The position numbers and the translations under genes were made by a program. From the NCBI RefSeq assembly GCF_026151205.1, contig NC_087076.1, positions 11,446,902 to 11,510,901 on the forward strand: a stretch of DNA of 64,000 nt, read 5' to 3'. Source of the DNA: Bolinopsis microptera (lineage: Eukaryota > Ctenophora > Tentaculata > Lobata > Bolinopsidae). Below the pieces are notes generated by a model. The model made no database searches and was not told the origin of the DNA. It saw only the letters and a list, made by a program, of their open reading frames with translations. This document shows, piece after piece, positions 1,706 to 53,861 of this stretch. Every line of letters starts with the position of its first letter. Position 1 is the stretch's first letter.

Positions 1706-3224
1706 TTTCTGCAGATGTGGTAGTGTTCCGAGGATTGTATTCGAGTTGTAAATTTGCTGCTCAATCTCATTATCAACACGATATTGAACTCGCTCCTTGA
1801 TTGTCGCAAAACATTTACTCCCGATTGTCCACATATATGAGGTTATATTTTTATACATATCACTGTAAAAGATTGGGTTCAGAAGACTGTTGATTGGGAT
1901 CACGATCAGAGCAAATATCTCAAACATTTTTGCCGGAGGATTTATACCGGCATAGGTCAAGATGATGACAGTGGCTATGAAAGAGACCCAGCTGACCAGT
2001 TGTGAGATTATCATGAGAGACAATTTTACTGTCAACTGAGAAGTGTTGTCATTATTGACTGCACCAGCTTGCTGACGGGAACTTCTTGTCTTGAAAACTA
2101 TGATGATGTAGGATGCTGTGATGGCCGTAAGCAATAAAGCCACAACTACGCAGTAGATGATCTTGTACGTGTGATAGTTACCTTGCACCTTAAAGACGTT
2201 GGATATACACAGTGGGGTGTTACCGTAGTATCCTATGTCTGCAACATTAAATATCGTGTTATCGGAGGTAATGTTGGCATTTCTAAGGTCAGCTAAGATC
2301 AAGATTGTATCTGTTGAAGAACTGTTATTGAAATAGTGGCTGTGGATCCTTTGGACATCTTTTATCATATCAGGGCCTTCTCTTGATGTTATGAAGGGAT
2401 TTTTGTCCACAGCTGTTAGGGTCATGCTTGTTTGTCCGGAAAATGTTCTGGAGCTGATGAATAGGTAAAATGGGAACAATAGAATGAACAAAGCTGAGAA
2501 TAAAAACAATGACAGTAACAATCCTGACTGTATTCTTCGAAAGTTCAAAGGAGAACCCCAGTGAGCACTTTAAACACCTTAGAATACTCATAATGCCAAT
2601 GACAATCAATGAGCTATGAGAGGATACAGAGAAAATAACTCCTAGCACCATACATGCTACACTTGCACGCCAGTCTTCATCAAATTGACAGTAATCTCCT
2701 TTAATCTTTAGAACAATTGATGCAACAATCATGAAGAAAAGGTATACGCCCATTAGAAAATCATAAAAACATATTGAAAGCCGTAAAATCCTATCTATTT
2801 GAGCTGCATTTGAAGTTGGATTTTCGTGATAAGTTGTAAGACCAACAGATATGTTAATTATCATGATACTCAGACCTCCAAATGTAGCTAAAGCAGCGAT
2901 GAGTTTAGATTCCACCATAAACTCAAAAGAACCATCCAGGGTGCAGCCTGAGCACTCATCTTTTCCATTGTTACAGTCTTTCTTTCGGTCACATACCAGA
3001 CTTTCGTTTATCCAGCTGCCAGCTTTATCGACAGAGCAGTAAAAACGTCCTGGGCAACCCAACTCGTCAGCACTGTTTAGACAGTGTATTTTACCATCAC
3101 ATAAAAAGTCCACCGGATAAGAATTATTTGAATGAGCTACTGAGTCATTTTCGCACTTGAAGACCATGGAGTGGGGCATAGTCCGACTCACACCTCCAAT
3201 TCTTATGGCCGTACTCAAGCCGTT
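1556..3224 (-). CDS. LDLa-containing rhodopsin-type GPCR, frameshifted and tail-truncated (5' exons missing)
   Basis: A cell-surface receptor of the class A group with extracellular LDLa modules, as in cnidarian receptors and molluscan GRL101. The ligand is unknown. The upstream frame (3224 down to a stop at 2370) shows two Cys-rich LDLa-like modules, with CDGKIHC, NSADELGC and CDRKKDC, followed by TM1-TM4. TM5-TM7 are in a second frame (from about 2569 to 1556), with YYGNTPLCISNVFKVQ before TM5 and NSLLNPIFYSDMY (the NPxxY motif) in TM7. The two frames differ by one base and overlap at 2370-2570 across TM4 and the second extracellular loop, so there is a one-base indel there or a sequence error. 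No signal peptide is present. An acceptor-like TACAG precedes 3224 in the sense direction, so earlier exons are expected upstream but I found none. The tail ends in repeat units and then in transposon sequence. It may be a pseudogene. Confidence 0.72.
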
Positions 3225-3470
3225 CTGTATTAACTAAAAGTGTACACTGTACATGAAAGTATGACATTTTTAGCCCTCCCAGTGCTGAGAAAATAGACAA
3301 AATTTACTAATACATATTTACAAATAGTAATTAAATAATAGTAATTTACTAATAGTAAATTTTACTGTAACCATTTTGATGACTCAGTAATACTGAGTAA
3401 GTATGATCTCAGGTTTGGTTCCGATGCAGAGAATATTAGCTAGAAGGCTGGTGTTGTGGATGTACTCGGG

Positions 3471-5400
3471 ATGGAGCTAGTTCTTCAGAAGAAGTTCCAT
3501 GTTTCACTGCTATTCTTTTGTCGGCTTCGGAAATCCGATAAAACGGGTAAGTTAAATCTCATCACCAAACTACGCATCAAATAAAAAGCAGTCGTTCATG
3601 TCTGGTGAGAATTTACGTCGATAGCATCGAGTTTCATATTTCACATCGACTTACTCTCAGCAAAAGTTCGATTTGTTATAAGATAAATTTTGGAGTACAC
3701 TGTTCAATGTACAATAGACCGATTTGTGATAACTGAGTCCAGAGTCGTAACTGACTTATTTAGACTATACCTATTACATTTTGTTTCTAAATATAACTGT
3801 AATACATTGATGTAAAGTTTATTTGAATTTTGAAATAAAACGAAGGAAACACACAATGTTAGGCTTGAATCCTTCGTAAAAAACTACATTTTAGAGCCTG
3901 TAAAACAGAATATAGAATACTAGAAACCCGCCGCTAGTCGAAAGCTTTGTTCGAGGAAATTTTAAGCATCAGTTATGTTTTAATTTCTCTTCATCATATA
4001 GCCCCAAAACAATACTTTTTACCGCATCAAAAAATTTCAATCACAACCAAAGTTATAAATATATATAGGTATTTATCGGTCATCGCTAGTCAATGGTCAA
4101 ACAATCCAACAAATATGCTTTAGTTCCCGAACCCTGCTTCACTGAAAATATATGAATTACACATTTGAATCATTTCGGTAAATGTCAGGTCCCTCATCGT
4201 CTCATTTGATAGATCTGTTCAAATTGAAGTTTTTACGTATGAAAGAATTGTGATAAATAAAAAAGGAAATTTGTGCTGAATGAAATTGGTAAAATGACAT
4301 AATCTATCAAATGACTTTAGATCCTAAATCAAATGGTTAATAAATGGATATTTACGTAGGTTGACAAAACGTTAATTCAAAATTATTATCATTATATGAA
4401 ATTATTATATGAAAATTGATTGCTATGAAAATAAGTAATAGCTAGTTATGAAGACAATCCTTGAACACGGGATTCTTTGCAATATTGCCCCGACTTGACA
4501 GCACCAAGATATCCTTAGGATCGTGTGTTCTTGACAAAGCTTTGTTCGAGGAAATTTTAAAAATCAGTTATGTTTTAATTTCTCTTCATCATATAGCTCT
4601 GTTATACTGTAGACATAATGGAATTTATCTAACAATGGCGACAGCGTTGTTAGTATTCGGATTCCCAAAACGATACTTTTTACCGCATCAAAAAATACCA
4701 ATCACAACCAAAGTTATGAATATAAGTCATAGCGTGAGCGTAAATGTGAGCTAGTTTTGAAATTATGACGTAGCATACAGCATAACAACGCGCGTAGTTA
4801 AGATGTTTTTGCTCGCGCACGTGCATTTTAACGTTGCTACGCAACAGCGCAGTAAACCTTTGCTAAAATAACGACATTATTCTAACGGTTATTTTACCTC
4901 ACTTCCGACGTTAATTATAAAAAATCTAAAGCCTAAATCAAAATTCTAAGAATGCTATAGCCTATTCCTATCCTTTTTCTACAACCCTGCTAAAAATGGC
5001 GAGGTTTCAATTCCATTTGCGAGCTGGGTTTGATTTCACCAGAGGGTCATTTTGAGGTCGATTTTCGGTGTTTTTTCTTCTATGTCCCCGTTGCCGGGGA
5101 AATTTCGTCAAGTTTAAATTATAGTATAGATAGATTGTCCGAATAATGCTCAACCTCTCAATTTAGAAGATCATTCGTTTACTATTACCATTGATTTAAA
5201 CTCCATTAAATTTCAGGGTTCCCATGTTCTGAGGAAGAGAGTATGCAATTAGGACATGATAATGAAGATACTAAGTACTGCTACAGAGTTACTGCTACAT
5301 TAGTAGACCTAGACCGACCAGGACCAGGTAAACGTCATTAATATGAAATTATTCTGACAACATACAGACAATTTCAGCAATGGCCATTGTCCAACTGTAA
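3471..5400 (+). CDS. possible small three-exon gene, unknown product
   Basis: Exon 1 (3471-3546) starts MELVLQKKFHVSLLFF and ends at a GTAAGT donor. Exon 2 (5217-5327) lies between TTTCAG and a GTAAAC donor and contains HDNEDTKYCYRVTATLVD. Exon 3 (5378-5400) follows ATTTCAG and ends IVQL and TAA. Both junctions are in phase (1/2), giving about 70 residues with a weakly hydrophobic N terminus. I do not recognise it. Exon 3 has a relative at 675-694. The 1.7-kb first intron and short exons make chance assembly possible; exons 2 and 3 are better supported than exon 1. Confidence 0.28.
3941..4740. repeat. pair of diverged direct repeats
   Basis: About 120 bp at 3941-4060 (AAGCTTTGTTCGAGG onward to AAAGTTATAAATA) recurs at 4537-4720, where roughly 60-75 extra bases interrupt it. 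The shared core ACCGCATCAAAAAAT is close to the reverse complement of part of the dispersed family at 19755, 33495 and 54410. I found no gene in 3547-5216 apart from this. Confidence 0.6.
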
Positions 5401-6008
5401 GGTAAGACACCCTCACCAATAGTCGATAAACAATTACAAACCAATTTGATAAATTATATAAAATAGTGAAACTTTAACACACAGTTATCTGTAATCGGAG
5501 TCCAGGTGTGAGGGAGATTGGGTTAAATAAGTAAATACACCAGTAATGTGATGCAAAGATCAACTTTTATTTATTTTGTCGATCCAGATTCCAGTTAGAC
5601 TTAGAAGTGTGAAGAATGTGCACGCTACTACTTTGATATAAGTTTTATTATTTTAAGATGTGACAAACCTTTAGTGATTCCTAGTTTAGCAATGGTTCCC
5701 ACTTTGCTATGATGTGGAATGTGGATTCTTTCAACATAATTCTTCAGGCCTATGTTTGTTTCGTTATGTATGTATTGTATTTTGTTTTATAGTGAGCGGA
5801 GACTCTCAATTCGTCGCGTCAGTATGAATAAACAATTTTATCAACCTATTCACATCGCTAATCAGACTCATTACATTTAATAGAACAGCCACCCTCGTGG
5901 GGATTGGGGATATGATTCAAATAGATAACTTTTAACCCCCTTACAAATTAAAAGTAAGGAGATATATCAAGCGTACTCTAATCTGTTTAGTCCTGCACCG
6001 TCAATATA
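5401..6008. other. gene-free stretch
   Basis: I see no coding frame or structured repeat. The last bases (about 5990-6008) look like the degenerate outer edge of the 68-bp satellite that continues after the next element. Confidence 0.5.
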
Positions 6009-6816
6009 CCTTACTCGGGATTATTACGACGGGTTTATTAACGACCGGTTAAAATATGGTTCGGGAAAAATATGGCGAAATTGCTCAAAACCCACCACAT
6101 TTTCCCGGTCGCCATTTTACCGGTGTCCAACCTTTCAATTTTAGATTCAAAAATTTTGTCTCAGATGTAAATTTCCTTATTAGAGATAAGCAAGTTTAGA
6201 AATTTTCGCATTGCTAAAACTTGTGAAACAAGTCAAATTATCAATAATTGTTGAAAGTAGACAGAAATAATGACTCGTGGTTAATCAAACTAGATGGAAA
6301 ATAATTTTTAACATTTGAAGCGTAACAACCAGATCGATATTAAGATAAAGGGAGAGCTGTTTAGTCTTCCAATAAGTTGTAATCATTTTCGTTATCTTCA
6401 TCTGGATCATCCCTTTCATCAGTTTTAATTAATTCAAGTTTTAATTTAACTGTTACTTTTACTTTGAGTCCTATTTCATTATGTAGAGATAGTCAATACC
6501 TAAGAAATTAAAAATTGGCCTATTTAAATCAAATTTGACAATAAGGATATATGTGATATGACAAGAATTGGGCAAAAAGGTGAATTTTTTGCAATTTTAG
6601 CCAAATGAAGTCGAAAAACCTACAACAAGTGTCCCAATAGTCTTCTTTAGTGAATATAAGACAACGATTAAAATATGAGCACCCATACCCCTTGGGAACC
6701 CTATAAGCTGAGTAGGCGGGTTTATTAACGACCGGTGAAAATGTGGTTCGGGAAAAATATGGCGAAATTACCCTAAATCCACCACTTTATCCCGGTCATA
6801 ATAATCCCGAGTAAGG
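6009..6816. mobile_element. 808-bp TA-flanked inverted-repeat element (Tc1/mariner-like target)
   Basis: The left end CCTTACTCGGGATTATTA is mirrored by the right end TAATAATCCCGAGTAAGG, with TA on each side. Removing the element and one TA joins GTCAATA to TAGATAATATTTTACAG, which matches the satellite unit sequence. The insertion therefore landed in a satellite monomer. Near each end is the same direct subrepeat (TTATTAACGACCGGT, at 6033 and 6721). The family is inferred from the TA target only. Confidence 0.75.
6361..6490 (-). pseudogene. coding remnant inside the TA element (possible transposase C terminus)
   Basis: On the minus strand a frame of about 42 codons follows an acceptor-like TTTCTTAG near 6497. 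It reads GLKVKVTVKLKLELIKTDER and then an acidic tail ending NDYNLLED and stop (6361-6363). Its position inside a transposon suggests the end of an element protein. No catalytic motif is present, so the family cannot be named. Confidence 0.3.
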
Positions 6817-9800
6817 TAGATAATATTTTACAGTTAGGACACCTGAAAGCGCTGGTTAGCTACTAGTAGACCACCCCGTCTATATAGATAATATCTTACA
6901 GTGAGGACACTAGAAAGCGCTGGTTAGCTACTAGTAGACCACCCCGTCTATATAGATAATATCTTACAGTGAGGACACTAGAAAGCGCTGGTTAGCTACT
7001 AGTAGACCACCCCGTCTATATAGATAATATCTTACAGTGAGGACACTAGAAAGCGCTGGTTAGCTACTAGTAGACCACCCCGTCAATATAGATAATATCT
7101 TACAGTGAGGACACTAGAAAGCGCTGGTTAGCTACTAGTAGACCACCCCGTCAATATAGATAATATCTTACAGTGAGGACACTAGAAAGCGCTGGTCAGC
7201 TACTAGTAGACCACCCCGTCTATATAGATAATATCTTACAGTGAGGACACTAGAAAGCGCTGGTTAGCTACTAGTAGACCACCCCGTCTATATAGATAAT
7301 ATCTTACAGTGAGGACACTAGAAAGCGCTGGTTAGCTACTAGTAGACCACCCCGTCTATACAGATAATATCTTGCAGTGAGGACACTAGAAAGCGCTGGT
7401 TAGCTACTAGTAGACCACCCCGTCTATATAGATAATATCTTACAGTGAGGACACTAGAAAGCGCTGGTTAGCTACTAGTAGACCACCCCGTCAATATAGA
7501 TAATATCTTACAGTGAGGACACTAGAAAGCGCTGGTTAGCTACTAGTAGACCACCCCGTCTATATAGATAATATCTTACAGTGAGGACACTAGAAAGCGC
7601 TGGTTAGCTACTAGTAGACCACCCCGTCTATATAGATAATATCTTACAGTGAGGACACTAGAAAGCGCTGGTTAGCTACTAGTAGACCACCCCGTCAATA
7701 TAGATAATATCTTACAGTGAGGACACTAGAAAGCGCCGGTCAGCTACTAGTAGACCACCCCGTTTATATAGATAATATCTTACAGTGAGGACACTAGAAA
7801 GCGCTGGTTAGCTACTAGTAGACCACCCCGTTTATATAGATAATATCTTACAGTGAGGACACTAGAAAGCGCTGGTTAGCTACTAGTAGACCACCCCGTC
7901 AATATAGATAATATCTTGCAGTGAGGACACTAGAAAGCACTGGTTAGCTACTAGTAGACCACCCCGTCTATATAGATAATATCTTACAGTGAGGACACTA
8001 GAAAGCACTGGTTAGCTACTAGTAGACCACCCCGTCTATATAGATAATATCTTACAGTGAGGACACTAGAAAGCGCTGGTTAGCTACTAGTAGACCACCC
8101 CGTCAATATAGATAATATCTTACAGTGAGGACACTAGAAAGCGCTGGTTAGCTACTAGTAGACCACCCCGTCAATATAGATAATATCTTTCAGTGAGGAC
8201 ACTAGAAAGCGCTGGTTAGCTACTAGTAGACCACCCCGTCTATATAGATAATATCTTACAGTGAGGACACTAGAAAGCGCTGGTCAGCTATACTAGTAGA
8301 CCACCCCGTCAATATAGATAATATCTTACAGTGAGGACACTAGAAAGCGCTGGTTAGCTACTAGTAGACCACCCCGTCAATATAGATAATATCTTACAGT
8401 GAGGACACTAGAAAGCGCTGGTCAGCTACTAGTAGACCACCCCGTCAATATAGATAATATCTTACAGTGAGGACACTAGAAAGCGCTGGTTAGCTACTAG
8501 TAGACCACCCCGTTTATATAGATAATATCTTACAGTGAGGACACTAGAAAGCACTGGTTAGCTACTAGTAGACCACCCCGTCTATATAGATAATATCTTA
8601 CAGTGAGGACACTAGAAAGCACTGGTTAGCTACTAGTAGACCACCCCGTCTATATAGATAATATCTTACAGTGAGGACACTAGAAAGCGCTGGTTAGCTA
8701 CTAGTAGACCACCCCGTCAATATAGATAATATCTTACAGTGAGGACACTAGAAAGCGCTGGTTAGCTACTAGTAGACCACCCCGTCAATATAGATAATAT
8801 CTTGCAGTGAGGACACTAGAAAGCGCTGGTTAGCTACTAGTAGACCACCCCGTTTATATAGATAATATCTTACAGTGAGGACACTAGAAAGCGCTGGTTA
8901 GCTACTAGTAGACCACCCCGTCAATATAGATAATATCTTACAGTGAGGACACTAGAAAGCGCTGGTTAGCTACTAGTAGACCACCCCGTTTATATAGATA
9001 ATATCTTACAGTGAGGACACTAGAAAGCGCTGGTTAGCTACTAGTAGACCACCCCGTTTATATAGATAATATCTTACAGTGAGGACACTAGAAAGCACTG
9101 GTTAGCTACTAGTAGACCACCCCGTCTATATAGATAATATCTTACAGTGAGGACACTAGAAAGCACTGGTTAGCTACTAGTAGACCACCCCGTCTATATA
9201 GATAATATCTTACAGTGAGGACACTAGAAAGCGCTGGTTAGCTACTAGTAGACCACCCCGTCAATATAGATAATATCTTACAGTGAGGACACTAGAAAGC
9301 GCTGGTTAGCTACTAGTAGACCACCCCGTCAATATAGATAATATCTTTCAGTGAGGACACTAGAAAGCGCTGGTTAGCTACTAGTAGACCACCCCGTCTA
9401 TATAGATAATATCTTACAGTGAGGACACTAGAAAGCGCTGGTCAGCTATACTAGTAGACCACCCCGTCAATATAGATAATATCTTACAGTGAGGACACTA
9501 GAAAGCGCTGGTTAGCTACTAGTAGACCACCCCGTCAATATAGATAATATCTTACAGTGAGGACACTAGAAAGCGCTGGTCAGCTACTAGTAGACCACCC
9601 CGTCAATATAGATAATATCTTACAGTGAGGACACTAGAAAGCACTGGTTAGCTACTAGTAGACCACCCCGTTTATATAGATAATATCTTACAGTGAGGAC
9701 ACTAGAAAGCGCTGGTTAGCTACTAGTAGACCACCCCGTTTATATAGATAATATCTTACAGTGAGGACACTAGAAAGCACTGGTTAGCTACTAGTAGACC

Positions 9801-10080
9801 ACCCCGTCTATATAGATAATATCTTACAGTGAGGACACTAGAAAGCACTGGTTAGCTACTAGTAGACCACCCCGTCAATATAGATAATATCTTACAGTGA
9901 GGACACTAGAAAGCGCTGGTTAGCTACTAGTAGACCACCCCGTTTATATAGATAATATCTTACAGTGAGGACACTAGAAAGCGCTGGTTAGCTACTAGTA
10001 GACCACCCCGTTTATATAGATAATATCTTACAGTGAGGACACTAGAAAGCACTGGTTAGCTACTAGTAGACCACCCCGTC
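6817..10080. repeat. 68-bp satellite array, about 48 units
   Basis: The monomer contains TCTTACAGTGAGGACACTAG, AAAGCGCTGGTTAGCTACTA and GTAGACCACCCCGTC. Units vary at a few fixed positions: TCTATATAG/TCAATATAG/TTTATATAG, GCGCTGG/GCACTGG, GGTTAGC/GGTCAGC. Rare variants (TCTTTCAG at 8187 and 9345; CAGCTATACTAG at 8287 and 9445) recur at a spacing of 1158 bp, which is 17 units plus a 2-bp insertion. Part of the array was therefore copied as a 17-unit block. There are no spacers and no coding frame. It is not a CRISPR. Confidence 0.95.
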
Positions 10081-13000
10081 TACTCGACATATAAACGTTC
10101 GCTCTCATAATCTCAAGACAATCCTTACACGGTGTAGCTCTCGATGTAATCACTTGATTGGCAATTTTATAAGCCGATAATTGCCACCATCAGTGAAGAG
10201 CTCCAAGTATGATAATGGCGGGGAACGAATAATTTGCTCTTATGAGCCGTGATTATACTGCTTATGTGCAGAGTACACTGTGTACTCCTTGTTTAAAGCA
10301 CATGCCCTGCCTTTTGTTTACTTCAGAAATGAGTTTTCTTGGATTGAGCGAACAACCTCCCGGCGCGCGTCATGTCACGGTAAACGTTGCATAATCCCTT
10401 TTATCTTGCTGTATATCTACTAGTTTTCCCATAAAAGCCTCCCTTGCGTTTTGTTGTACTTCATTATAACGCCTCCCGTAGATCTTCGTTTATTCTACTT
10501 TCGTTCCCTGTGTACGTGGCTTGCTCCAAGATGACTAATACTTCGACTTGGTATTTAAATTGCCGTGGAAAAGAGAGAATAGCGGATTGTTTATCATTGT
10601 CTTGGTACTGAGCTTTTAATCAATAAGATTTGGAAACATTGTCTTCTTTAATTATGGTATTCTTTCGCTTATGCGTGTCATTCGTCATTCAGTTGGTATG
10701 ACTTTATAGTTTATCCACGACTTTACCATGATTGTATACAACACCAGTTATTCTGCTTTCTGTAACACAATTTCTATTGTCAGTGTCTTGCTCAGACTAA
10801 TAAGAGTAAAACATGTTCATTGTTCATTTGAAGGTGAAGATATTGGTAAACAAAAAAGTAGCGTTTTCGACATTAGTGCCATAATTTTGGCATCTATAAA
10901 CCTAGCATGTTCAGAACTTCTGCACATTAGCCACAATCCATACTCCCATATGCACTGCTCAGAATATTTACTTTTGTTAGGCACTATAATGTTTAAAATG
11001 TTACATTTTTTTGTGTGACTTTGTTAACTATAGCTGCCCAGTTAGTATTTTTTGGACGGAAATGTAGTCAGTAGTACTAGTAGATTAAGTCAACCTAACA
11101 ACTGTTAGATTGGGCATGGATCCAACTGTTATAAGGCAATATTTCGTTAATTTTGTCACGTTTTTAATACTTTCAACACTACTATGTAACAAATAATTTG
11201 AGGTATCGAATTATTACAAAATAGTTGTTTAGTTTTTTTAAGAACTGACAATTTGTCATTTTGTTCCTTCGGCCCTTGATCTTTCTAGCAGGGTTTATAA
11301 CATGGAAAAGATGGAGTCGGACTTGAAAACAATCTTGAGTTATACACTGCCAAATTACCTAATTATATAGCAAATCTGTTATGAGGGGAGAGAGAGAAAG
11401 AGAGCGAGAGTGGGAGAGTACACACATACACACTTTAGTACCACATTTGGATCACAAAATGATCAATTAAACCGATTTGAAAAACCGTGATGATTTGGCT
11501 TCTTCAGAGTTTTGTCGGCACTATACCGAAAAAACTAGCCCAGTAACTCTTACCGTTTTCTTGATCAAGCCGCTCGAAAATTACACGCGAACGAACGAAC
11601 ACACACACACACACATCTTGAGAATATTAGTATTGATTGTCATATGTGCCCATCCTTACAACTAGAGTCTTGACAATCAAAATTTGTTAAAAAACGGCAG
11701 TAAGGGGTCCATAATATATAGTGTGAAAATGTAAACATAAATCCGTGCCGGCCGTATTTAGGCGATATCTTATCACCTGATTATGTGACAAAGTTTGCCT
11801 AGCAGATGAGACGATTATCCTAACCAACAATTAGGGTTTATATGTTATCGTAGTGTGACAAAGTTAACTACACTTCTTTTTAATAGGGTTGTATATTTAC
11901 CAATATCCTCAAATGAACATGTCTATTAAACCGACGAAAAGGATCAGAGAAAAGAGGATGTCCTAATGCTTTTTCAATGCCATAATACAGAGTACAGACG
12001 GAGTGCCACAAAACCCGTCTATTACAGCTTCCGATTCGAATAATATTTTCATCGTTATCCTGCATTTTTCGACCATATTAAATTTATGGTCTAGATTCAT
12101 CATTCAAATGCATCGGCAGATGTTCCTTTTGTTTGAAATTTTATAATTTGTATGGATAATTGAGATTTTTACGGTATAATCATTGTTGAATCATTCTATT
12201 GTGCGGCAATTTCCAAAGTTAATTTCAAACAATAAAAAGTTTCATCTCATTTAATTTTAACCGTCGTATGTGTGAGAAAAGCTCCAGTATTACAAAATCA
12301 CTGGTATCGCGAATAATATCTGTGACGTTTCTTGATTTTTCATTGTGGCCCATATTACTAACTACCCCGTGCCCTTTTACCACTACTATAGAAAACTGAG
12401 TTTCACTGGTTTGAAATTACTATTTGAGCTATTGTCACGAAACATGAATGGCAGGGCGTTCCTATTGTTATAAATGAAACTAGTTTAGTGACAGAGAAGA
12501 AATTATTAGATAGAAATAAGTGAAACAAAGAGTTATAACTCTTTATAAATAATACAAATACAACTTTCTGTGCAAAACCTTTTGACTCGATTGTAGACTC
12601 ACTCGAAGGGGTCTATTAGATTGAGCTAGCAAGGATTGCCTTAGATTAGAACTTTAGAACTAAGAAAAATGTAGGTTATAAACTCGCACGCTTGTCAATT
12701 CGTATCCATAAGATTATAGTGATAAAGTTAACAAGAAGTAAGTTTGGTCTCCACCGCTTTTCAGACATATACTCCAAAACTGCAACGCCACCCTGCTTGA
12801 CGGTGCAACCCGGCCAATGAGCTCCCGACTATAGTAGCCTCACTGTAGTCGCGGGGACTAACCACAACCCGAACACTATCGAAGTTGTGTTTTACTATCC
12901 TGTCAAGTGACCAAAACAGTTTTTGGCCGTTACTCGTCAGGGAAGCATTTTTACCCTACGTCATGGGGGGTTATTCGGAATCAGCATCCAAAAATACACC

Positions 13001-41191: not shown

Positions 41192-43719
41192 ATGCGAGCA
41201 AAGGAGATGATTATGCTGGTAAACGGAGCATTACCAACAAAATGTTATGCAACATCAAACTCAGTCATCTAAATATGATGTTAACCTACACTTACATTGT
41301 TTGTACGGTTATATAGTATAATTGGCTTATACTGTAATTAGATGTATATCATTATTGATTTCAGCTAAAGTACAATCGGCAAAACTGAAGGGCCAAGAAG
41401 CAAGGCCTTTATTCGATGATGCAAAACAGTGACAAAACATTTCATCTGATGACGTACCACTATGGTCTTCTCCGACCTCTGGTCAGCTATACACTTACAG
41501 TGCAGTATTAGATATCGACCGGTCTTTGGTTTTGACTGCTAGACCGGAAACGGCCCGATATAAATATATTTTCCGGTACAGGATTTTGGCCGCTAAGCCA
41601 TTTCATATGGTCTCATAACTACTTACCAAAACGACATAACCTTGATTCACGATGTCAATCCTTCGCATCTCGCCGATCTGGTTGCGAGAAGAATTATTTG
41701 CCGATCTGGTTGCGAGAAGAATTATTTGATGCGCGGCGCGACCCAGTAGTGCATCGCGCTACAAGACATAACCTTGTCTGCTTCTAATTCTAAAGCCTAG
41801 TTTGATCTAGGAGAAGCAGGGCATTCATTTAAAATAAACCCAGCTCTGTTTTCAAGTGTCAGCCTTTTTGTGAGAGATTGTGTCTTTTGTCTACTGTTGA
41901 CTGGATTACCAAGAAGTCTAAATGCCAGCTCGTTATTCTAGAAAATACGGACACTAACAGTAACTCATGAGTTGGTTGAGGTACATTTTTACAATCGGAG
42001 CATTATTACTATCCGTTCGTTAATTTCCGTCTTTCCTAGGTTGAAGAGCTGACGTTTAGGACTATATTAATCTGGAGTGACACTTTCTGAAAGAGAAATG
42101 TTTACTGTTTAGTCCAGTAGAAGATGTCTTCAGTCTATTTGGACTGGTGAGTTAGTTGAGAAATTCATATAATCTTATAATCAGAGCTTTCATCGGAAAC
42201 GAATTTTGTCTAAGATCATCAGTTGAGTTTGACTAAACTATCGTCCAGGCTTGTAAAGGTCTGATGAAGAAATAGTGGCTAAATCAATCTACTTTACTAA
42301 TTACTTAAAGGCCGTTTGTACTCCATGGATAACAAATCCAGTCGGGCAAGCTGCCAAAAGAGGATTTATGGTCAGCTGTTCGGTACGTGATTTTCAGTAA
42401 GTGGTTACAACAAATGCTATTGTCACTGTCAGCCACATATCCTGACCAAGTGGGTGGAGGACACAACAATGACCCCAATAATTCTACACAATTGGTCAAG
42501 ATACAGTTTACCTGTACGGTGTTTTGACCGGCAATTAGACCTTTTCAGCTTTACGAAGTGCCTGCAAATCAAATTTAAGTGAGACTGAGAGCACAACAAT
42601 ATATCTTATCTGTTATTTGTTTGAGTTGCGCAATTTTAACGTTATGCGAGACAGCATCTTTACTAGGGTTAGTAACTAATAGCTATATTAAGTATTGCCA
42701 TCAAATAACGGAATCGAAATGAACAATTTTTTAGTCTTAATTATTGAGGGTTCAAACAAGCTCAGCACAAAGTGCTCAATTTATCTATGATCTTTGGTTC
42801 CAGGTTCTTGTGAAACCTAACAAATTGTTTGGCAGGCGCGAAATGCCCGGACGGGGTCTGATGATCTGGCTACTTACTGTAACAACATGGCACCTATCAC
42901 CTTTAAAGTGGGTTTCCAACTGTTCGTGGTTGCATTGGTAGCTCTGATGATGGCTATTGGCATCACCCATCTCAACGAATGTCCTATAAATTGTCTGATC
43001 CCCATTTACCTGGTAAGTAACGTCTTCGTTGGACTCTTCTTTCTTTGGACTTCGGGTTTTCACAAAATTCAAACGCCGGAGTAATGATCAGTCGATAAGG
43101 GCTATAGTTGATCAGACTTAAAGTTTGGTTTGCCGTTCGGACAAAATATTTAATAAAGCTTTATATATCTTAGTATCTTACGACGCTTTCAAAGCGACAA
43201 TTCGACAAATAACTTTGGGCTCCACAGATAGCAACCGGAGGGCTGTATATTGGCTGGTTGGTGCTTGAGATGGGCTGCGAACAATGCGATTTTCCCAATA
43301 TCAAGCTCTGGCTCAGAATTCTCTTGAGCCTCTCAGCCGTTGGATTTTTTATCGCTGGTAAATTTTTTAGATATTTCAATTTTAGAAATTTCTACATTTC
43401 CGTGTTAGACCTTCTAATTAATTTCAGTCCAAGTTTAACCAATAATTCCAGTCAACTCTCATCAGGCAACATCTGGGTGTACGGGGCATGGGAGGAGGTG
43501 GAAACAAGGAAACGTTTCCTAAACAATGACGAGTACTGCAACCCGTGGGTGTACTGGGTGGCCTTCTGTACCATCACCATCAACACCGCCCTCACCATTA
43601 TAGGCCTGTTCAGTCTGATGGCCTGGTGCCTCCTAGCCTGCTGTATCAAGTTGTGCTGTAAAGGGGTGATAGATGAGACCACTCCACTTACTGCAGCTCG
43701 TAGTGACAGTCCTGCGTAG
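41192..43719 (+). CDS. TMEM272-like four-pass membrane protein, gene 1
   Basis: Exons 42836-43012, 43228-43357 and 43466-43719 are well supported. They have clean acceptors and donors and matching phases (0, then 1/2), and are homologous exon by exon to the gene at 46322. The family signature is present: ECPINCLIPIYL after TM1, FFIAGNIWVYG before the long loop, then YCNPWVYWVAF in the last membrane segment. A first exon at 41192-41218 (MRAKEMIML, phase 0, GTAAAC donor) is tentative and rests on the TATA box at 41095 and on phase. The protein has about 195 residues with four membrane segments and a short tail. Unlike gene 2, it has no intron in the TM1 region. The last intron (108 bp) is stop-free in frame. 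The molecular function of the family is not established. Confidence 0.75.
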
Positions 43720-46321: not shown

Positions 46322-49300
46322 ATGACGGATGAACAGGGTCCCAAGAAGGGATTCTGGGAACAGGTTGAAATTGTAGAGCTTTTATTGAAATGGGACCTAT
46401 GACTGCACAGTGCACACCAATGCAAAAGTTCTTCTAAGACATCTACGCAACGTCTTTTTAACAAGATGACTCTTTTACTTTCCCAAAATTCCCAACTGGA
46501 ATATGATGATATGATATCGCCGAGTAAATATAGTTTTTATTTCAGGCCAGGGAAGCCCGTCATAACTCAGACGGATGGATTAAATACTTCATCACCATGG
46601 CAACAATAACGTCGGTCACCGCTTGTGGTAATGCATTTTATTGGTTACGAATTGTTTTTATAAAACACGCCCAAATTGCTGAACAATCGGATTGTTTGAT
46701 CGAATCAATTGTCAATTGATCCAGATAGTCAGTATCATAGACAGTACCCGGCAAATGTCAAATCTCCACAAAACTTTACTTGATTCTGTACTTACCTCAA
46801 CAAACTATAACCACAACTCCACAGGAACTTGTCTAATGGTGATAGCACTTCTGGTACCTTTCCTAGCTGTTATTATAGGTGTAGCTAAGATAGACGACTG
46901 TCCTGTTAATAGTATGATACCCATCTACTTGGTAAGTCCAGTCAGTGGACATTTTAATGGGGACCGAGAGCAAAATAGTCATATGACATATCTAATTCGA
47001 TATTGTATTACTTATCCATTTTGTTACATTCATTTCTATTGCTATTGAAGTAATTTTGTTGGTTTGAACTTAACACGTTGACAATACTGACACAAGTTTA
47101 TGTTAATAATTATTAAATGGCTTACAAATTTATATCACTGTATAACAATACATGTAAGTAAAACATCAACAAACACAATAAAAGATCCTCCATATCAATT
47201 TGGCAAACGGGGGAAACTCTGGAGAAAAAAAACGATAAAAATAATAAACACACGTATTATCATAAACACAGTTACACTAACAAAACAGCTTCCTGAGAGA
47301 AGACTACGACAACTTCTTAAACCCCGTGAAATTGGCACATATGTTCATGTTTACAGATCCCATCAGAGCACCTCACAGTGCCCGTAGGACATTTCCCACT
47401 ATTACTATCCTCACAGAGACTACAAGTTTTCTTACAGTTCTTAGTCATGAAGCGGTGATACTTGCTCCCCTTCTTACAGTACCTAGTGAACTTCCCACAG
47501 TACACATCCCTGCTCAGATTCTTGCACTCTGATCCGGAGTTGTCGTTGAACTGTTCCTGTTCCTGTTTGTTGAACTTTGGAGGGTTACAATTCCCGGTGC
47601 ACTGCATTACCGGCCGGTAGACGTAGTCAGAGATCCCACAGTTGCTGGAGACGTCTCTAGAGATCCTGATGTAGCCTTCATCTCCCCACTGGGTACCCCA
47701 ACTGTTCCTCACTCTCCAGTAGTTATTACCTCCTGTATTTCCGTATCCTACCACTGAGACTGCGTGGTTTGGTTGTTTACCCCAACATCCTGAGACGTCC
47801 TGGTAGATGCCGTTTTTGTACACGTGGAAGGTACTGCCGACGTAGATAGCAGCGGAGACGATCCCCTTGGTGACACCAGAGAGTAAACCTGAGTCTCCCC
47901 TGTATGTTTGGTAACCGGTAACTCTGGCTTTGGTCAGGGAGTTGGCAACTCTGGAGTAGGAGCAGGAGCCGTCTCTTTCTTTGTAAACTTTATCTCTGCT
48001 GTTGGCTAAACGTCGGGCCTGTTTGACGTAGTCAATAGGTTGGCTCAACCATCCTCCTTTGCATCCATCCCTCCCTTCTCTCTCGTATGTGCAGTCCAAA
48101 AGTTCTTGCTCGGCAAAAGAAATCCGATCTCCAGTAGTCAGATAATAGGTACTCTCGATGGCAGAAACGGTACCAAATGCCCAACAACTTCCACAACCTC
48201 TCTGATCCTTCATCGGAGGGTTCGCTCCCCTCGACACCCAGTCAACATATGTGGGTTGAGAGCTAGTTGGAAGGATTGGTTCAGTAGAGAGGTGCATATC
48301 TGTCTCTTCCTCCGCATACTCGGATATGTTAAGACCGGTGTACTGCCTCCTTTCTGCTTCAGTCAGGGTGCTGAACATGTTCACCTCCGCACTGTACGGG
48401 ATACTGTCGTCTCCGTTAATATGGTCTATCTCTGCTTTGTACTGCTTGAAGTTGAGGAATCTCTCTCGTTCTGTCGTTCCATCTCCAGCAGACATGAGTC
48501 CTTGTGTGGTTCCGTGATACTTCTCCATCGCTTTGAAATACTCTTCCACCAGAGATTCGCTAGCAGCGAGGGTGATGGTGAGAGCTAGAAGAAGTGAGGT
48601 CCTCATAGTAGTAGTGTTACTGAACTGGAAGTTGCTGTGAACTGATGATGAGGGGGGTTGTGAGGTAATATTTATACTGGAGTAGGCGATTAGAGTGAGC
48701 TTTTGTTCTTTTGTTTATCTTGTTATTGATAAGGACGGCAGGTAATTGCGGCAACTTGTGACGATTGACCGTGGTTTATAGAATAGGTTCAGGTTTCGTT
48801 TGTTAAAGCATAGTCCTGGTTAGTGACAATGACATTCCATTTCCATTATTTATTGAGTGACCTGTTAATTTTGACGAGCAAATTACACTAACCAACCCAC
48901 TGAGCAGAAAGTAGCTTTGTCGAGGGTACTAAGTTGCAAAGTATGGGGGAATTTACAATAAATTAGGGTCATAATTTTGAAATACATCAGTAGCTCATGC
49001 TATAATGTCTCAACGAGACTTATCAAGATTTACTGTCTCTAAGCAACTTGCTTTCTATTTGACACGTTTTCGCTAAAGATTTTTTCCTTTTCACCCTTTT
49101 GAAAAAAGGCAATAGTGAAAGGTTACGAATGGAGGTTTTTGCAGAAAAACGTGGATTTTGGAGAACGAGATAGGTGGGTTTAAATATGTCGTGTGTCCTT
49201 CCTTCCTTCCTTCCGTTCGTTACCATGCAACGAAAAAGTTGGGCGCGCGCGAGGATTGCTTGCGGAGATGTGATGTATAGATAGCCTGTGATTTATGAAT

Positions 49301-51847
49301 GCGCGGCGCGACTGTGTTTTAATGTATAGGATACAAGGATACAAGGATACAAGGATACAAAAGTGATAATTATTTTATTGAATTCACAATAGTTATGATT
49401 CTGAAATAATTTAAGGTTACACAATTCTAGTTATTTACAGATGTGTAGGGATAAAATAGAAATGTTTAATATAATACTATTTTTGAGGTCCTATAGCATT
49501 ATGCATTGGCCAGTATTTGAGTGGAAATCTGGGCTCTTATAGTAGGCTGTAAAATTTTCGTTCACAGAGAGAATTGAATGGATTGCTCTTGCTGTGGCAG
49601 TAAATTTTGTAGGGTCTAGTGTTTTATCGGATAGCAAACCGGCTAGGTCAGTAATATTTTTGGGATGGAAGTTAAATTTTTCTCTAACTGAGGAGTAGAG
49701 TAAACAGTCAGTTAGAACATGAATTTCGTCCTCAATAGGCTTAAGCCCCTTGCTGAAAAAGCAAAAAGTGCACCATCGATATGATGCATGTAATGTATAA
49801 TATTACTATTAGGTAATACGCCCAATTTGTACGTGGCACGCGTAGTGTATTGATGTGTACACGAGTATAGTTTACCTTTGCTGATAATTTCTTGAATTAC
49901 AGATACAAGTTAAGTTCTACGGCAATTGAACTGAATTTCAAGTGTTTCCCGTATTTGATGCATAATTTATCAATATTATTATCATGAAGATTGAAGTGAG
50001 CTGATTGGAGCTTATACTTAAATTTATAGTAAATGTGAAATGGAAATCTAGCGTCCGCCAAAACGAAACAACGGGCGCAATTCTTGTTATTGATAACCTG
50101 TAAGACGTACTTCAAAAATTTATCCGAGGACCACGCATCGTAACAGCTGGCGATGTTGTAATTATGAGTCTTTTCGCAGTACGAACCAAGATACAACTAT
50201 ACAACAATCTATACTACATACCTTACCAGTTGACCAGCCACTAGGAGACCGTTTCCAGCCGGCAGCATATTATATCTGATAACTATCATCCATCTAGCTG
50301 TTGGATTTCCATTTTTATTCAGGGCTTCTAATAATTAACCTGAAAATGCATTAATTCTCTTAGTTGCGATAAAGGGTAGTTTACATGATACAAAATCAAA
50401 ATTTTGGTACTTCAACCCTGATAATCGCCCTCCTAAAATGTATCCCCTGCACATCACTGCTAACATAAATTATCTGTTTTTACCTGTACTGTATAATGTA
50501 CCTGTTTGGGCTGTTTATCATACTACACTACATTGCGATATTATCACATCTCCTCCAGATAGCAGTTGGTATAATAGGTGTTATCTCCTCCAGATAGCAG
50601 TTGGTATAATAGGTGTTATCTCCTCCAGATAGCAGTGGGTATAATAGGTGTTATCTCCTCCAGATAGCAGTGGGTATAATAGGTGTTATCTCCTCCAGAT
50701 AGCAGTGGGTATAATAGGTGTTATCTCCTCCAGATATCAGTTGCTATAATAGGTGTTATCTCCTCCAGATAGCAGTGGGTATAATAGGTGTTATCTCCTC
50801 CAGATATCAGTTGCTATAATAGGTGTTATCTCCTCCAGATAGCAGTGGGTATAATAGGTGTTATCTCCTCCAGATAGCAGTGGGTATAATAGGTGTTATC
50901 TCCTCCAGATAGCAGTTGGTATAATAGGTGTTATCTCCTCCAGATAGCAGTTGGTATAATAGGTGTTATCTCCTCCAGATATCAGTTGCTATAATAGGTG
51001 TTATCTCCTCCAGATAGCAGTTGGTATAATAGGTGTTATCTCCTCCAGATATCAGTTGCTATAATAGGTGTTATCTCCTCCAGATAGCAGTGGGTATAAT
51101 AGGTGTTATCTCCTCCAGATAGCAGTGGGTATAATAGGTGTTATCTCCTCCAGATAGCAGTTGGTATAATAGGTGTTATCTCCTCCAGATAGCAGTTGGT
51201 ATAATAGGTGTTATCTCCTCCTCCCTGGGTTTGTGGAGACAATGTGCTGGAGTGGAGGACATCAAGACTCAGCGTTGTATTGCTTGTCTCCAGATCCCTC
51301 TAACTCTCGTCTGGTTTGGATTCTTCATCGCTGGCAAGTCGCAGATTATTAAAATACATGCAATGTTATCACATTTATGGAGAATGAAATCAGTAAATAC
51401 GCCGTAGTAAACAGTTATTGAAATTTGGATATGGGCACTCTTTAGTCTCTAAGTATGTTTTGCATTTTCTACTCAAGAATATTACAATTATTATAACCTT
51501 GAAAATGTTGATGTTCGGTTACGACAGGAAATGTGTGGGTGTACGGGTCGCTGAAGAAAGTAGAGACGGATGAAGAAATGAGGGTGTTAAAAGGAGCCGG
51601 AAAAATCCCGAACCCCAACTATTGTAACGCTTGGGTGTATTGGCTTGCTTTCTTCATGATAACCATGGTGTATGTCATGATAATCCTGATGTGCTGTCTG
51701 CTCTGTGCTCTCGGAGCCGCTATTTCTCGAGGTAAGAGCGAGGAACAGGCACCGATAGTGCAAGATAACGAAGCCCCAAACTACACTGAAGAAGGGGGCG
51801 CTGCACCTCAAGAAGCGGATCTGGAAAATACAGAGAATCCCGCCTAG
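46322..51847 (+). CDS. TMEM272-like four-pass membrane protein, gene 2, hosting a nested gene
   Basis: Five exons: 46322-46363, 46546-46627, 46825-46931, 51189-51333 and 51528-51847, all phase-consistent, 231 residues. The start MTDEQGPKKGFWEQ is the first ATG of a short exon with a CAG|GT donor. Family signatures are DDCPVNSMIPIYL, FFIAGNVWVYG and PNYCNAWVYWLAF, with four membrane segments and an acidic, proline-containing cytosolic tail ending TENPA. Exon 4 is reached through the last of 19 tandem copies of its acceptor. Intron 4 starts with GC (CTG|GCAAGT), a GC-AG intron. Intron 3 (4.26 kb) contains a complete cathepsin-ShKT gene on the other strand plus a LINE relic. The alternative is two partial genes, but exons 1-3 and 4-5 supply exactly complementary parts and no second 5' or 3' half is visible between them. 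Confidence 0.8.
47317..48606 (-). CDS. papain-family cysteine protease with C-terminal ShKT module, intronless
   Basis: A secreted or lysosomal C1A endopeptidase of 429 residues. It has a signal peptide (MRTSLLLALTITLAAS) and an I29-type propeptide with an ERFNIN-like helix (ERERFLNFKQYKAEIDHIN, 47-65). The mature domain starts near 120. Catalytic residues are Gln135 and Cys141 in QRGCGSCWAF, His281 in NHAVSVVGYG and Asn301 in NSWGTQWGDEGY. A linker leads to a six-Cys ShKT module (361-398, ending CKKTCSLC), then a Cys-rich end with CPTGTVRCSDGIC that resembles half an LDLa repeat. ShKT tails on enzymes are common in cnidarians and nematodes. The gene has no introns, its own TATA box at 48669-48676, and lies inside intron 3 of the + strand TMEM272-like gene. 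Confidence 0.97.
   Translation of the reverse strand: MRTSLLLALTITLAASESLVEEYFKAMEKYHGTTQGLMSAGDGTTERERFLNFKQYKAEIDHINGDDSIPYSAEVNMFSTLTEAERRQYTGLNISEYAEEETDMHLSTEPILPTSSQPTYVDWVSRGANPPMKDQRGCGSCWAFGTVSAIESTYYLTTGDRISFAEQELLDCTYEREGRDGCKGGWLSQPIDYVKQARRLANSRDKVYKERDGSCSYSRVANSLTKARVTGYQTYRGDSGLLSGVTKGIVSAAIYVGSTFHVYKNGIYQDVSGCWGKQPNHAVSVVGYGNTGGNNYWRVRNSWGTQWGDEGYIRISRDVSSNCGISDYVYRPVMQCTGNCNPPKFNKQEQEQFNDNSGSECKNLSRDVYCGKFTRYCKKGSKYHRFMTKNCKKTCSLCEDSNSGKCPTGTVRCSDGICKHEHMCQFHGV
48669..48676 (-). promoter_or_regulatory. TATA box of the cathepsin-ShKT gene
   Basis: TATAAATA on the minus strand, 63 bp before the start codon, giving a leader of about 30 bases. Confidence 0.6.
48677..49490. other. 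gene-free stretch with a short tandem repeat
   Basis: Three to four copies of an AAGGATAC/AGGATACAA unit at 49327-49360. Otherwise nothing recognised. Confidence 0.45.
49491..50340 (-). pseudogene. C-terminal remnant of a LINE-type retrotransposon
   Basis: On the minus strand, 50196-49897 is an open frame with SCYDAWSSDKFLKYVLQV and ADARFPFHIYYKFK. It continues after a stop and shift as YTTRATYKLGVLPNSNIIHY, then after a one-base shift as a frame of about 100 codons. That last frame carries CTFC...EDEIHVLTDCLLYSSVR and ends at 49491. The C-x2-C...DE-x-H-x-L-x2-C-x2-Y-x3-R pattern is the zinc-knuckle-like end of many LINE polymerase proteins. Fragments upstream (to about 50340) look related. 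It is inactive and the clade is not determined. Confidence 0.55.
50549..51223 (+). repeat. 35-bp minisatellite made of a 3' splice site, 19 copies
   Basis: The unit is ATAGCAGTTGGTATAATAGG plus TGTTATCTCCTCCAG. It consists of the polypyrimidine tract and AG of intron 3 of the TMEM272-like gene 2 plus the first 24 bases of its exon 4. AG dinucleotides recur every 35 bp from 50558 to 51188. Only the last one opens the coding frame; from any other acceptor the reading meets TAG after 12 codons. Variants GATATCAGTTGC and GGGTATAAT are interspersed. Confidence 0.95.
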
Positions 51848-52732
51848 ATTCCGATATTTTGTGACTGTATGAGAACATTGATTGTTGACGAATCATTATG
51901 GTCATGACTCGACAGCTGGAACTGCATTCAGGACAAATATAACTATCTCATTGTCATATTTGAGAGCGGCAGTCAATACTTTGGATGGGAAAATAGTTTT
52001 TGATACTAGTACGGCCACGTATCCTGGTAGTAAATATACGGCTTCGCATGCACCCCCGCTATCGATGAGATGATTGGTAGGGCAGCGTTTCAGACAAGGA
52101 AGCGATTGATAGACTGGAATTCCAACAAAATTATGTAATTTAAATAGTTTTCAACCAAATTTAATATGCATCAATAGCTAAAATTCATTCCCAACAAATA
52201 TTTTGTATAAATTAATTACAAAACTGTCAGAGAATCATATTCAATATCTTATAAACCTTGTTTGTCTTGTAAATTGAATAAAATATATGGCACTTTTTCG
52301 ACGAAATAAGTATTATCCGATACCGTGCCACATCCTAAATCCTGTTCCAAGATATTTTCATCAGGAGTTTGTGGCATAGTACATTCATTTCAAGATCATG
52401 CAAAGTCGCAGACATAAAGTATAAACGATATTTGCAGATATAATGATAGCTGTAAACGCCCTCCCTGATGTATTAGGACAGTTAAAATTTCTTTTTATCT
52501 TGGAAATTTGGTTCCCAACGATGTTTTGGAAATTTTCAGAATTTAAATTTTTGGCATATTTCACCGGTTCAAAACACTTTCCTGTCATATTAGAACTGAT
52601 TACTTATATGATAGATCAGTTTAAGGCTGTTTCGGGCGATATCTGAAAGTGAGAAAATGTCTCCATTTTGAGGAATCATTATATCATGTATATTATGCAT
52701 TTGCAGCTAGATTCGGGTTGGGGATCAATTTA
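51848..52732. other. gene-free stretch
   Basis: 3' flank of the TMEM272-like gene 2. No coding frame with protein character. Confidence 0.45.
52277..52282 (+). terminator. polyadenylation signal downstream of TMEM272-like gene 2
   Basis: AATAAA lies 430 bp after the stop at 51847. It is the first canonical one I see. Confidence 0.35.
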
Positions 52733-53861
52733 GTAGGGACTACGGGTGGAAGATGAATAATTGAAATTCCAACAGCATCTTGTTCCCTTCATTGTGCTGA
52801 TTCCGTGAAGCATTCTGTTTACGCTCTCATCATTTTGTAGAATGAGATATCGTTCATTTAAAATTGGGTAATTATAGGCCTGTCAATGATTGCAGCCCAA
52901 TTAAGAGCTGATCAATTGCAGCTCCTTGTGCCATATAAGGGATAACTGAGGTCACGTGACAGTCGGTCCTATCACGTGACCTTGATTCGTTAATCCTCGA
53001 GCACGTGATCACATTCGTAACGTGTCGTATGCCGACTAGGATATTTTGTGACGTCACCAGAGCTCAAGTTACTTGATCAGGCCTTATATGGAGTAATACA
53101 GTGTTTCGTGTGTAATTGGACCCAATTAGAGGAGCTGAACGCTCAATTATAACAGCATCTGGTACCACCTTCTGAAACCCAGCAAACAGCTGGCTCAGAG
53201 AATCGAAAATAGAAGGATTTTTTATGGATGAAAATCGAAGGGAAAACCTTGTAACGCTACATTTTCGATGACGCTGAACAAGAATAAACTGGTCATAATT
53301 ATCATACTCTCGTGTAACGTACTTGAAATTTGAATCATGCTATCAATTGTAATACAATTTGTACAATAAGCTGAGCTGCTTAACGGCTGGTATTCCTGGG
53401 CCGCGCTCATCCCAGCTTGTCATTCCGCCTCAGCTTCACTGTTTGTGAATATTACAGCCTGGGGTCCCCAGGTAACGGCTGGCACCGCAATCTCTTCATA
53501 ATCTCAGTTTTTGTAAATAACGAAGCCTCTAGTTCACAGCCAATGAGCGGGCTTACGAAGGAAAGATCTCGAGTTGAGAAGACGAAAGAAATTTATCCAA
53601 ATATGTGCTAAAGATTCAAACGAATACGGATAACAACCAATATCGAGAAGGACTCCCAATGGATTGTATCGGGACTTCTATAAGCGTTATTTCAAGTCTT
53701 TATAGCGGTTTTAGGATGAACTAACGGTATTTTAGGATTGTGTTAGGGCTACTTACGAGTAGGTTGACACTCCTGTTATGAGAATGTTCCCCTTCCGTAG
53801 AATGAAGGGAACAAGTTGCTGTTGGAATTTCAATTATTCATCTTCCACCCGTAGTCCCTAC
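52733..53861. mobile_element. 1129-bp TIR element with 6-bp target duplication
   Basis: Terminal inverted repeats of nearly 60 bp (GTAGGGACTACGGGTGGAAG onward to TTGTTCCCTTCATT) are flanked by AATTTA at 52727-52732 and 53862-53867. There is no transposase frame. A copy of the 82-bp hAT-like element is nested inside. Confidence 0.8.
53391..53472 (+). mobile_element. 82-bp hAT-like miniature element nested in the 1129-bp element
   Basis: It runs from TATTCCTGGGCCGCGCTCAT to GGGGTCCCCAGG. The flanks share TAACGGCTGG on both sides (53381-53390 and 53473-53482), which includes an 8-bp duplication. Confidence 0.7.

What the first reader, a model, noticed from the sequence alone, without database searches (positions are those of the whole stretch)
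50549..51223. Nineteen tandem copies of a live 3' splice site in front of a coding exon
Seen: a 35-bp unit made of the intron's pyrimidine tract and AG plus the first 24 exon bases is repeated so that AG acceptors recur every 35 bp from 50558 to 51188. Only the last acceptor opens the frame. The others hit a stop after 12 codons. Each unit also has an AG|GTGTTA donor-like site, so units could act as 19-bp microexons. Either the splicing machinery skips 18 equal-looking acceptors, or the locus makes many non-productive transcripts, which would let copy number tune expression. A minisatellite that multiplies an active splice acceptor is something I have not seen described.
Basis: partly seen in the sequence, partly recalled or inferred. 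Interest (0 to 1): 0.85.

Follow-up and report, generated by a model that had tools for sequence, protein, structure and literature searches.

The report
Minisatellite of an exon's splice acceptor
An animal gene, probably of a comb jelly, carries 19 tandem copies of one intron-exon boundary of which only the last is expected to give the protein; this type of repeat was described before in amphioxus as "mirages", and in this genome it recurs at exon ends of several other genes.

Summary
In detail: 19 identical acceptors (TCTCCTCCAG) stand exactly 35 bp apart (50558-51188) before a coding exon of a five-exon, 231-aa membrane-protein gene, and a neighbouring paralogue has the same intron position. 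Of 69 AGs tested, only the last acceptor and one pyrimidine-poor site keep the frame. A second, error-rich copy of the locus elsewhere in the assembly also has 19 units in a matching order, so the array is unlikely to be an assembly accident. The claim that this is undescribed is wrong: tandem repeats spanning exon/intron boundaries are known from amphioxus as "mirages", at both ends of introns, reportedly without disturbing splicing. New here are the host, probably the ctenophore Bolinopsis microptera (inferred), and the apparent frequency: similar arrays lie at exons of aminopeptidase N, FIG4, nucleolar GTPase 2, a homeobox gene and others, and three tandem perfect donors give 431 matches against 0 for the reversed control. 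Best reading: a tolerated minisatellite whose extra copies lie on the intron side and leave with the intron when the exon-proximal acceptor is used. No transcripts were available; which acceptors are used, and any effect of copy number on expression, are untested.

The parts
50549..51223 (+). 35-bp minisatellite, 19 copies; each unit = 24 coding bases of exon 4 start + ATCTCCTCCAG (pyrimidine tract and acceptor AG)
51189..51333 (+). exon 4 (145 nt), opened in frame by the last acceptor at 51188; followed by GC donor GCAAGT
   Evidence: paralogue exon 43228-43357 read
46322..46363 (+). exon 1 (42 nt, start codon)
46546..46627 (+). exon 2 (82 nt)
46825..46931 (+). exon 3 (107 nt), donor gtaagt at 46932, partner of the array's acceptors
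51528..51847 (+). exon 5 (320 nt, with stop codon)
46932..51188 (+). intron 3 (4257 nt) holding the array at its 3' end, a nested gene and a retroelement-like stretch
42830..43718 (+). neighbouring paralogue with the same intron 3/exon 4 junction but no array
47320..48606 (-). single-ORF papain-type protease gene with a ShK domain, nested in intron 3 on the other strand
   Evidence: PF00112 6.6e-57, PF01549 2.1e-4

Best explanation
The array is a 'mirage'-type minisatellite: a 35-bp stretch across the intron 3/exon 4 boundary was duplicated in tandem, helped perhaps by the 9-bp direct repeat ATCTCCTCC that lies both at the intron end and 35 bp further in the exon, and then grew by unequal exchange of one or more units. 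It persists because extra copies of a 3' junction lie on the intron side: if splicing pairs exon 3 with the acceptor nearest exon 4's donor (51188), the other 18 acceptors leave with the intron and the protein is unchanged. The exon-derived half of each unit also supplies a branch-like TATAAT 19 nt before the next AG. Shown: anatomy, frame outcome, the same architecture at other genes of this genome. Inferred: duplication route, branch point, exclusive use of the last acceptor.
For: Exact array and frame logic. Boundary confirmed by the paralogue. A second, error-rich copy of 49155-53375 on contig C10 aligns colinearly through 19 units: 15 of 19 have the same type, 2 are undecided, 2 differ, against about 10% random error. 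Same architecture elsewhere: aminopeptidase N exon, 37 bp x 9.9, unit = 24 exon + 13 intron bases; FIG4 exon with acceptor array 26 bp x 9.0 and donor array 35 bp x 7.5; PDZ exon with acceptor array 28 bp x 7.1; NOG2 exon end, 38-bp donor unit; homeobox exon end. Amphioxus mirages are reported not to disturb splicing. In a human data set, sites with a long upstream and short downstream intron behave as under exon definition, favouring sites nearest across the exon (PMC9225289 abstract and section 9); here the introns are 4257 and 194 nt.
Against: No transcript was seen. The same human data show a general preference for the upstream of two competing 3' sites, only reduced under exon definition. 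The exon 4 donor is GC, expected to be weak, which would weaken exon definition. No full yTnAy branch motif occurs in the unit, only 4-base TnAy matches.
Confidence: 0.8

Rival explanations
1. Leaky decoys: the upstream acceptors take a share of splicing, giving exons 35 to 630 nt longer with early stops that are degraded, so that array length lowers or tunes output of the gene.
For: All 18 upstream acceptors give a stop after 12 or 16 codons; the last 10 bases of all 19 acceptors are identical; upstream 3' sites are generally preferred in human pairs.
Against: Amphioxus mirages are reported to give no aberrant mRNA; arrays of this kind also sit in conserved genes such as FIG4, NOG2 and aminopeptidase N, which suggests tolerance.
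Confidence: 0.15
2. Splice junctions of this genome are a mutational hot spot: tandem duplication starts there more often than elsewhere, rather than merely being tolerated there.
For: Triple tandem motifs: AGGTRAG 7181 matches against 1785 for the reversed pattern, TTTTCAG 615 against 186, CAGGTAAGT 431 against 0. Single-motif ratios in tandem-masked sequence are only 64:57 and 110:63.
Against: Counts are overlapping matches, so long arrays weigh heavily. At array level on C1-C3 it is 23 acceptor arrays against 5 control arrays, P = 0.028 given the 110:63 baseline. Selection alone could give the pattern, because arrays inside exons are purged. 0 of 28 RRM loci, mostly long single-ORF genes, had a junction array.
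Confidence: 0.3
3. The gene is a pseudogene or not expressed, so the array is meaningless.
For: No expression data; no Pfam family at the gathering cut-off for the protein.
Against: 231-aa frame intact over five exons with plausible splice sites; exon positions shared with the paralogue.
Confidence: 0.04
4. Assembly artefact: the copies were made by the assembler.
For: The assembly, if it is that of B. microptera, was built from long noisy reads with gap filling (PMC10232365 passages).
Against: The read-like C10 copy also holds 19 units, 15 of 19 of the same type.
Confidence: 0.02

Closest known systems
Mirage minisatellites of amphioxus (Adh3, BflGb6, BflGb9, TnC; boundary repeats in PGBD5)
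   Same: Minisatellite-like tandem copies of an exon/intron boundary, acceptor or donor; copies keep AG/GT signals; homogenised units (PMC3087553 and PMC3902484 passages).
   Different: Other phylum (if the host is a ctenophore); regular splicing was shown there by RT-PCR and is not shown here; 19 copies here against 3 and 6 in BflGb6; here also three other arrays, of another gene, with a related unit.
Intron gain by tandem duplication of AG/GT segments (Rogers model; boundary repeats in human duplicated genes)
   Same: A short tandem duplication multiplies splice signals (PMC3087553; PMC2812944 passages).
   Different: No new intron: intron 3 is at the position seen in the array-free paralogue.
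NAGNAG and other close tandem acceptors (recalled)
   Same: Neighbouring acceptors compete.
   Different: 35-bp spacing, each copy with its own pyrimidine tract, 19 copies.

Membership tests
Mirage minisatellite | Tandem repeat whose unit spans an exon/intron boundary | tested here: met
Mirage minisatellite | Repeat copies retain AG/GT splice signals | tested here: met
   19 of 19 copies keep TCTCCTCCAG
Mirage minisatellite | Both acceptor and donor boundaries of the genome are affected | tested here: met
   acceptor: window, L027, L073, L084; donor: L084, L089, L098
Mirage minisatellite | mRNA is spliced regularly despite the copies | not testable with these tools
   no RNA held
Mirage minisatellite | Length instability between haplotypes or cells | tested here: inconclusive
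   the only second copy (C10) has the same 19 units and may come from the same haplotype
Intron gain by tandem duplication | A new intron arises inside a former exon | tested here: not met
   the paralogue without array has the same intron position and phase
   0 of 6 chain lengths (1 to 6) open

The most novel reading that the evidence does not exclude
In this ctenophore lineage exon ends are repeatedly seeded as minisatellites, perhaps in hundreds of genes, by a process tied to the junction itself; each array is a natural competition among tens of identical splice sites, won by the exon-proximal one, and array length sets how much productive mRNA some of these genes make.
Probability: 0.15. 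Interest if true: 0.85.

Novelty: new member of a known kind. Interest (0 to 1): 0.58.

Why it matters
Arrays of near-identical splice sites in conserved genes are ready-made tests of how the spliceosome picks one site among equals: the copies share sequence and differ only in position. If the genome-wide signal holds, an animal far from amphioxus has taken the same route on a larger scale, which bears on where minisatellites start and how intron ends move. Iso-Seq data for B. microptera are mentioned in print (PMC10232365 passages), so, if that is the host, the question can be answered from existing data.

Tried and rejected
Rejected: assembly accident (the read-like C10 copy keeps 19 units). 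Rejected: a true second gene on C10; differences there are 144 substitutions (36 transitions, 108 transversions) and 247 gap openings, at similar rates in exons and introns, which looks like raw-read error; part of its flank also recurs on C10 at 97% identity. Rejected: microexons. Rejected: a dispersed element behind the unit; the 22 specified bases of the core occur, with up to 2 mismatches, only in the arrays on C5 and in the C10 copy (84 matches).

Led nowhere: Pfam for the protein, nothing at cut-off. A codon score for exons next to arrays had no power: known exons of the window gene scored from -3.0 to 4.5, and 3 of 23 downstream against 1 of 23 upstream stretches passed; I then used family and PDB matches, which give positive cases only. 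No PDB match for the desaturase-like stretch beside L083. The donor search was too abundant to count arrays (100 of 7181 rows listed, three arrays).

Results against a strong genome-wide claim: 0 of 28 RRM loci (28 of 150 matches) have a junction array. Of 23 acceptor arrays fetched, 2 stand before an exon known by a database match (L073, L084), 2 before an open frame with no database support (L083, L070), 1 is an in-frame coding repeat next to a homeodomain (L085), and for the other 18 I established no exon. Of 9 donor arrays, 2 follow a family-matched exon (L098 homeodomain 2.7e-13; L093 WD40, weak, 8e-5), 3 an open frame only (L091, L092, L097), 4 nothing (L094, L095, L096, and L099 whose start was not reached). 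L033 could instead be a coding heptapeptide repeat, since its 21-bp units stay open in frame.

Correction of my own work: one search placed exon 5 one base off, so its last row and its 'productive AGs' line are void and replaced; its stop counts for the 18 upstream acceptors lie inside the array and stand.

Full report
What is there. The window lies at C5:11446902-11510901 of a 264.65-Mb genome in 232 contigs. At 50549-51223 a 35-bp unit is repeated 19 times; 19 acceptors TCTCCTCCAG lie exactly 35 bp apart from 50558 to 51188. Only unit positions 4, 9 and 11 vary, giving types A, B and C in the order AABBBCBCBBAACACBBAA; the block CBBAA occurs at units 8-12 and 15-19, as if several units had been copied together. 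The unit begins and ends with ATCTCCTCC, which is the intron end at the first copy and the codons ATC TCC TCC in the exon after the last copy; this 9-bp direct repeat is a natural seed for the first duplication (inference).

The gene. Five exons (46322-46363, 46546-46627, 46825-46931, 51189-51333, 51528-51847) give 231 aa with introns of 182, 197, 4257 and 194 nt; exon 4 ends at a GC donor. The protein looks like the TMEM272-like four-helix family (recalled; no Pfam model at cut-off). A paralogue at 42830-43718 has the same junction, IPIYL then IATGG, same phase, no array. The acceptor is therefore a real, conserved one.

Frame outcome. Use of any of the 18 upstream acceptors meets a stop after 12 codons (14 of 18) or 16 (4 of 18). 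Of 69 AGs tested as acceptors, only 51188 and 51137 leave the frame open to the natural stop; the second has no pyrimidine tract and would add 51 nt. Chains of one to six 19-nt microexons never stay open (0 of 6).

Is it an assembly accident? Contig C10 holds a copy of 49155-53375 at 90% identity with 144 substitutions and 247 gap openings, at similar rates in exons and introns. That pattern is what unpolished long reads give, and the likely source assembly used gap filling with long reads (PMC10232365 passages). The copy aligns colinearly through 19 units; by the three diagnostic positions 15 of 19 are of the same type, 2 are undecided (9, 17) and 2 differ (11, 18); all four C units agree. 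So a second sequence supports the array.

Related arrays. The array DNA also matched three arrays on C5. They belong to two copies of another gene, L004 and L005, whose exon APGGSPSARRRR... is preceded by 36-bp units x 21.9 and x 31.9 (in L004 a further block of 8.9 lies upstream) and whose next exon end is repeated with its donor in 66-69-bp units. A third, 33-bp repeat of exon end plus donor (2.8 copies held) opens L005, before a PDZ-like exon (20.6 bits, under the 23.2 cut-off). The 36-bp unit and the window unit share a 24-base stretch with one difference; their local alignment score of 22 was reached by 0 of 5000 dinucleotide shuffles (highest 16), and the core occurs nowhere else in the genome at up to 2 mismatches apart from these arrays and the C10 copy. 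I take this as common origin of the two units; direction unknown.

How common is it? Four samples. (a) PDZ exons: 30 loci of 44 matches, 26 distinct stretches. L027 has an acceptor array, 28 bp x 7.1, directly before the PDZ exon; L033 has a 21-bp x 71.7 array at the exon end, read as donor copies, though it also stays open in frame; L016 and L021 have degenerate short repeats starting at the donor. (b) RRM: 28 loci of 150 matches, 0 junction arrays; these were mostly long single-ORF matches. (c) Acceptor motif TTTTCAG three times in tandem: 615 matches against 186 for the reversed motif. From the first 100 rows I counted 23 arrays on C1-C3, and 5 for the reversed motif on the same contigs; against the single-motif ratio 110:63 this gives P = 0.028. 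Of the 23, two stand before a database-supported exon: aminopeptidase N (Pfam M1 4.2e-17, PDB 3.2e-18; 37 bp x 9.9, 24 exon + 13 intron bases per unit, the same plan as in the window) and FIG4 (PDB 3.6e-12; acceptor array 26 bp x 9.0 and, after the same exon, a donor array 35 bp x 7.5). Two more precede open frames without database support, one is a coding repeat, 18 are unresolved. (d) Donor motifs: AGGTRAG three times, 7181 against 1785 (singles 64:57); CAGGTAAGT three times, 431 against 0. The first three arrays all follow an apparent exon: L089 is nucleolar GTPase 2 (PDB 4.2e-14; 38-bp unit, with a 2.1-copy acceptor repeat before the same exon), L088 lies between two exons of an alpha/beta-hydrolase (4.8e-8, the match lying mostly in the exon after the array; ABHD17-like is recalled), L087 has an open frame only. 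Of nine arrays, two follow family-matched exons (homeodomain 2.7e-13; WD40, weak, 8e-5), three an open frame only, four nothing. These counts are of overlapping matches and partial lists; they show recurrence and a strong excess of donor arrays, not a genome-wide number.

What it is. [quoted passage not shown] PMC3902484 passage). The finding fits the structural definition; the splicing part cannot be tested here and length instability is inconclusive. It is not intron gain, since the paralogue has the same intron.

How it works, most likely. Extra copies of a 3' junction fall in the intron if the exon-proximal site is used, and extra copies of a 5' junction do so if the first donor is used; both kinds are found here. 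A human survey found that the choice follows proximity across the exon when introns are long, and that a long-upstream/short-downstream class behaves like exon definition, although upstream 3' sites are preferred overall (PMC9225289 abstract and section 9). With 4257 nt before and 194 nt after exon 4, that predicts the last acceptor. Each unit brings a branch-like TATAAT 19 nt before the next AG, so each acceptor is self-contained. Whether some transcripts use the decoys is open.

Host. Thirteen chromosome-sized contigs and 264.65 Mb fit Bolinopsis microptera (13 chromosome-scale scaffolds with 97.23% of the assembly; PMC10232365 passages). Searches for print on ctenophore minisatellites at splice junctions found nothing relevant in the listings; wider searches found the amphioxus work and human duplicated genes; one search added nothing. 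Papers outside this open-licence library were not searched.

Verdict. Observation right; not undescribed; a new member of a known kind, made more interesting by its recurrence in conserved genes of this genome.

Noticed in passing
window 47320-48606 (-): Papain-type protease with C-terminal ShK domain in one open reading frame, nested antisense in intron 3. Nested intronic genes are reported as frequent in the ctenophore Hormiphora (PMC8527503 passages).
   Followed up: partly
L003 (G000 C10:18224 kb region): About 4.2 kb of error-rich sequence duplicating window 49155-53375 between unrelated flanks, as if an unpolished read had been placed in a gap.
   Followed up: yes
L004 about 2212-8283 (G000 C5:18.7-24.8 kb): A stretch of about 6.1 kb with long inverted ends, its own minisatellites and GTTAGG/CCTAAC runs splits the 36-bp array, apparently with a short target duplication; it looks like an inserted inverted-repeat element (by eye).
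   Followed up: no
window 49330-50200 (-): Broken frames and an 8-bp tail repeat (AGGATACA) that look like the 3' end of a LINE-type retroelement in intron 3 (recalled motif, not searched).
   Followed up: no
window 1257-1701 (-): 54-bp repeats that read as an 18-residue coding repeat next to a receptor-like gene on the minus strand (by eye).
   Followed up: no
window 6817-10082: 68-bp unit x 48 copies flanked by a sequence that recurs near 6000, possibly inside a mobile element.
   Followed up: no
L085 (G000 C3:19257400-19258270): 33-bp repeat that reads in frame as SKDSPAPFSFQ before a homeodomain (6.3e-11): a coding repeat that imitates a tandem acceptor.
   Followed up: partly
L084 (G000 C3:15876520-15877480): One FIG4 exon with an acceptor array on one side and a donor array on the other.
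   Followed up: partly
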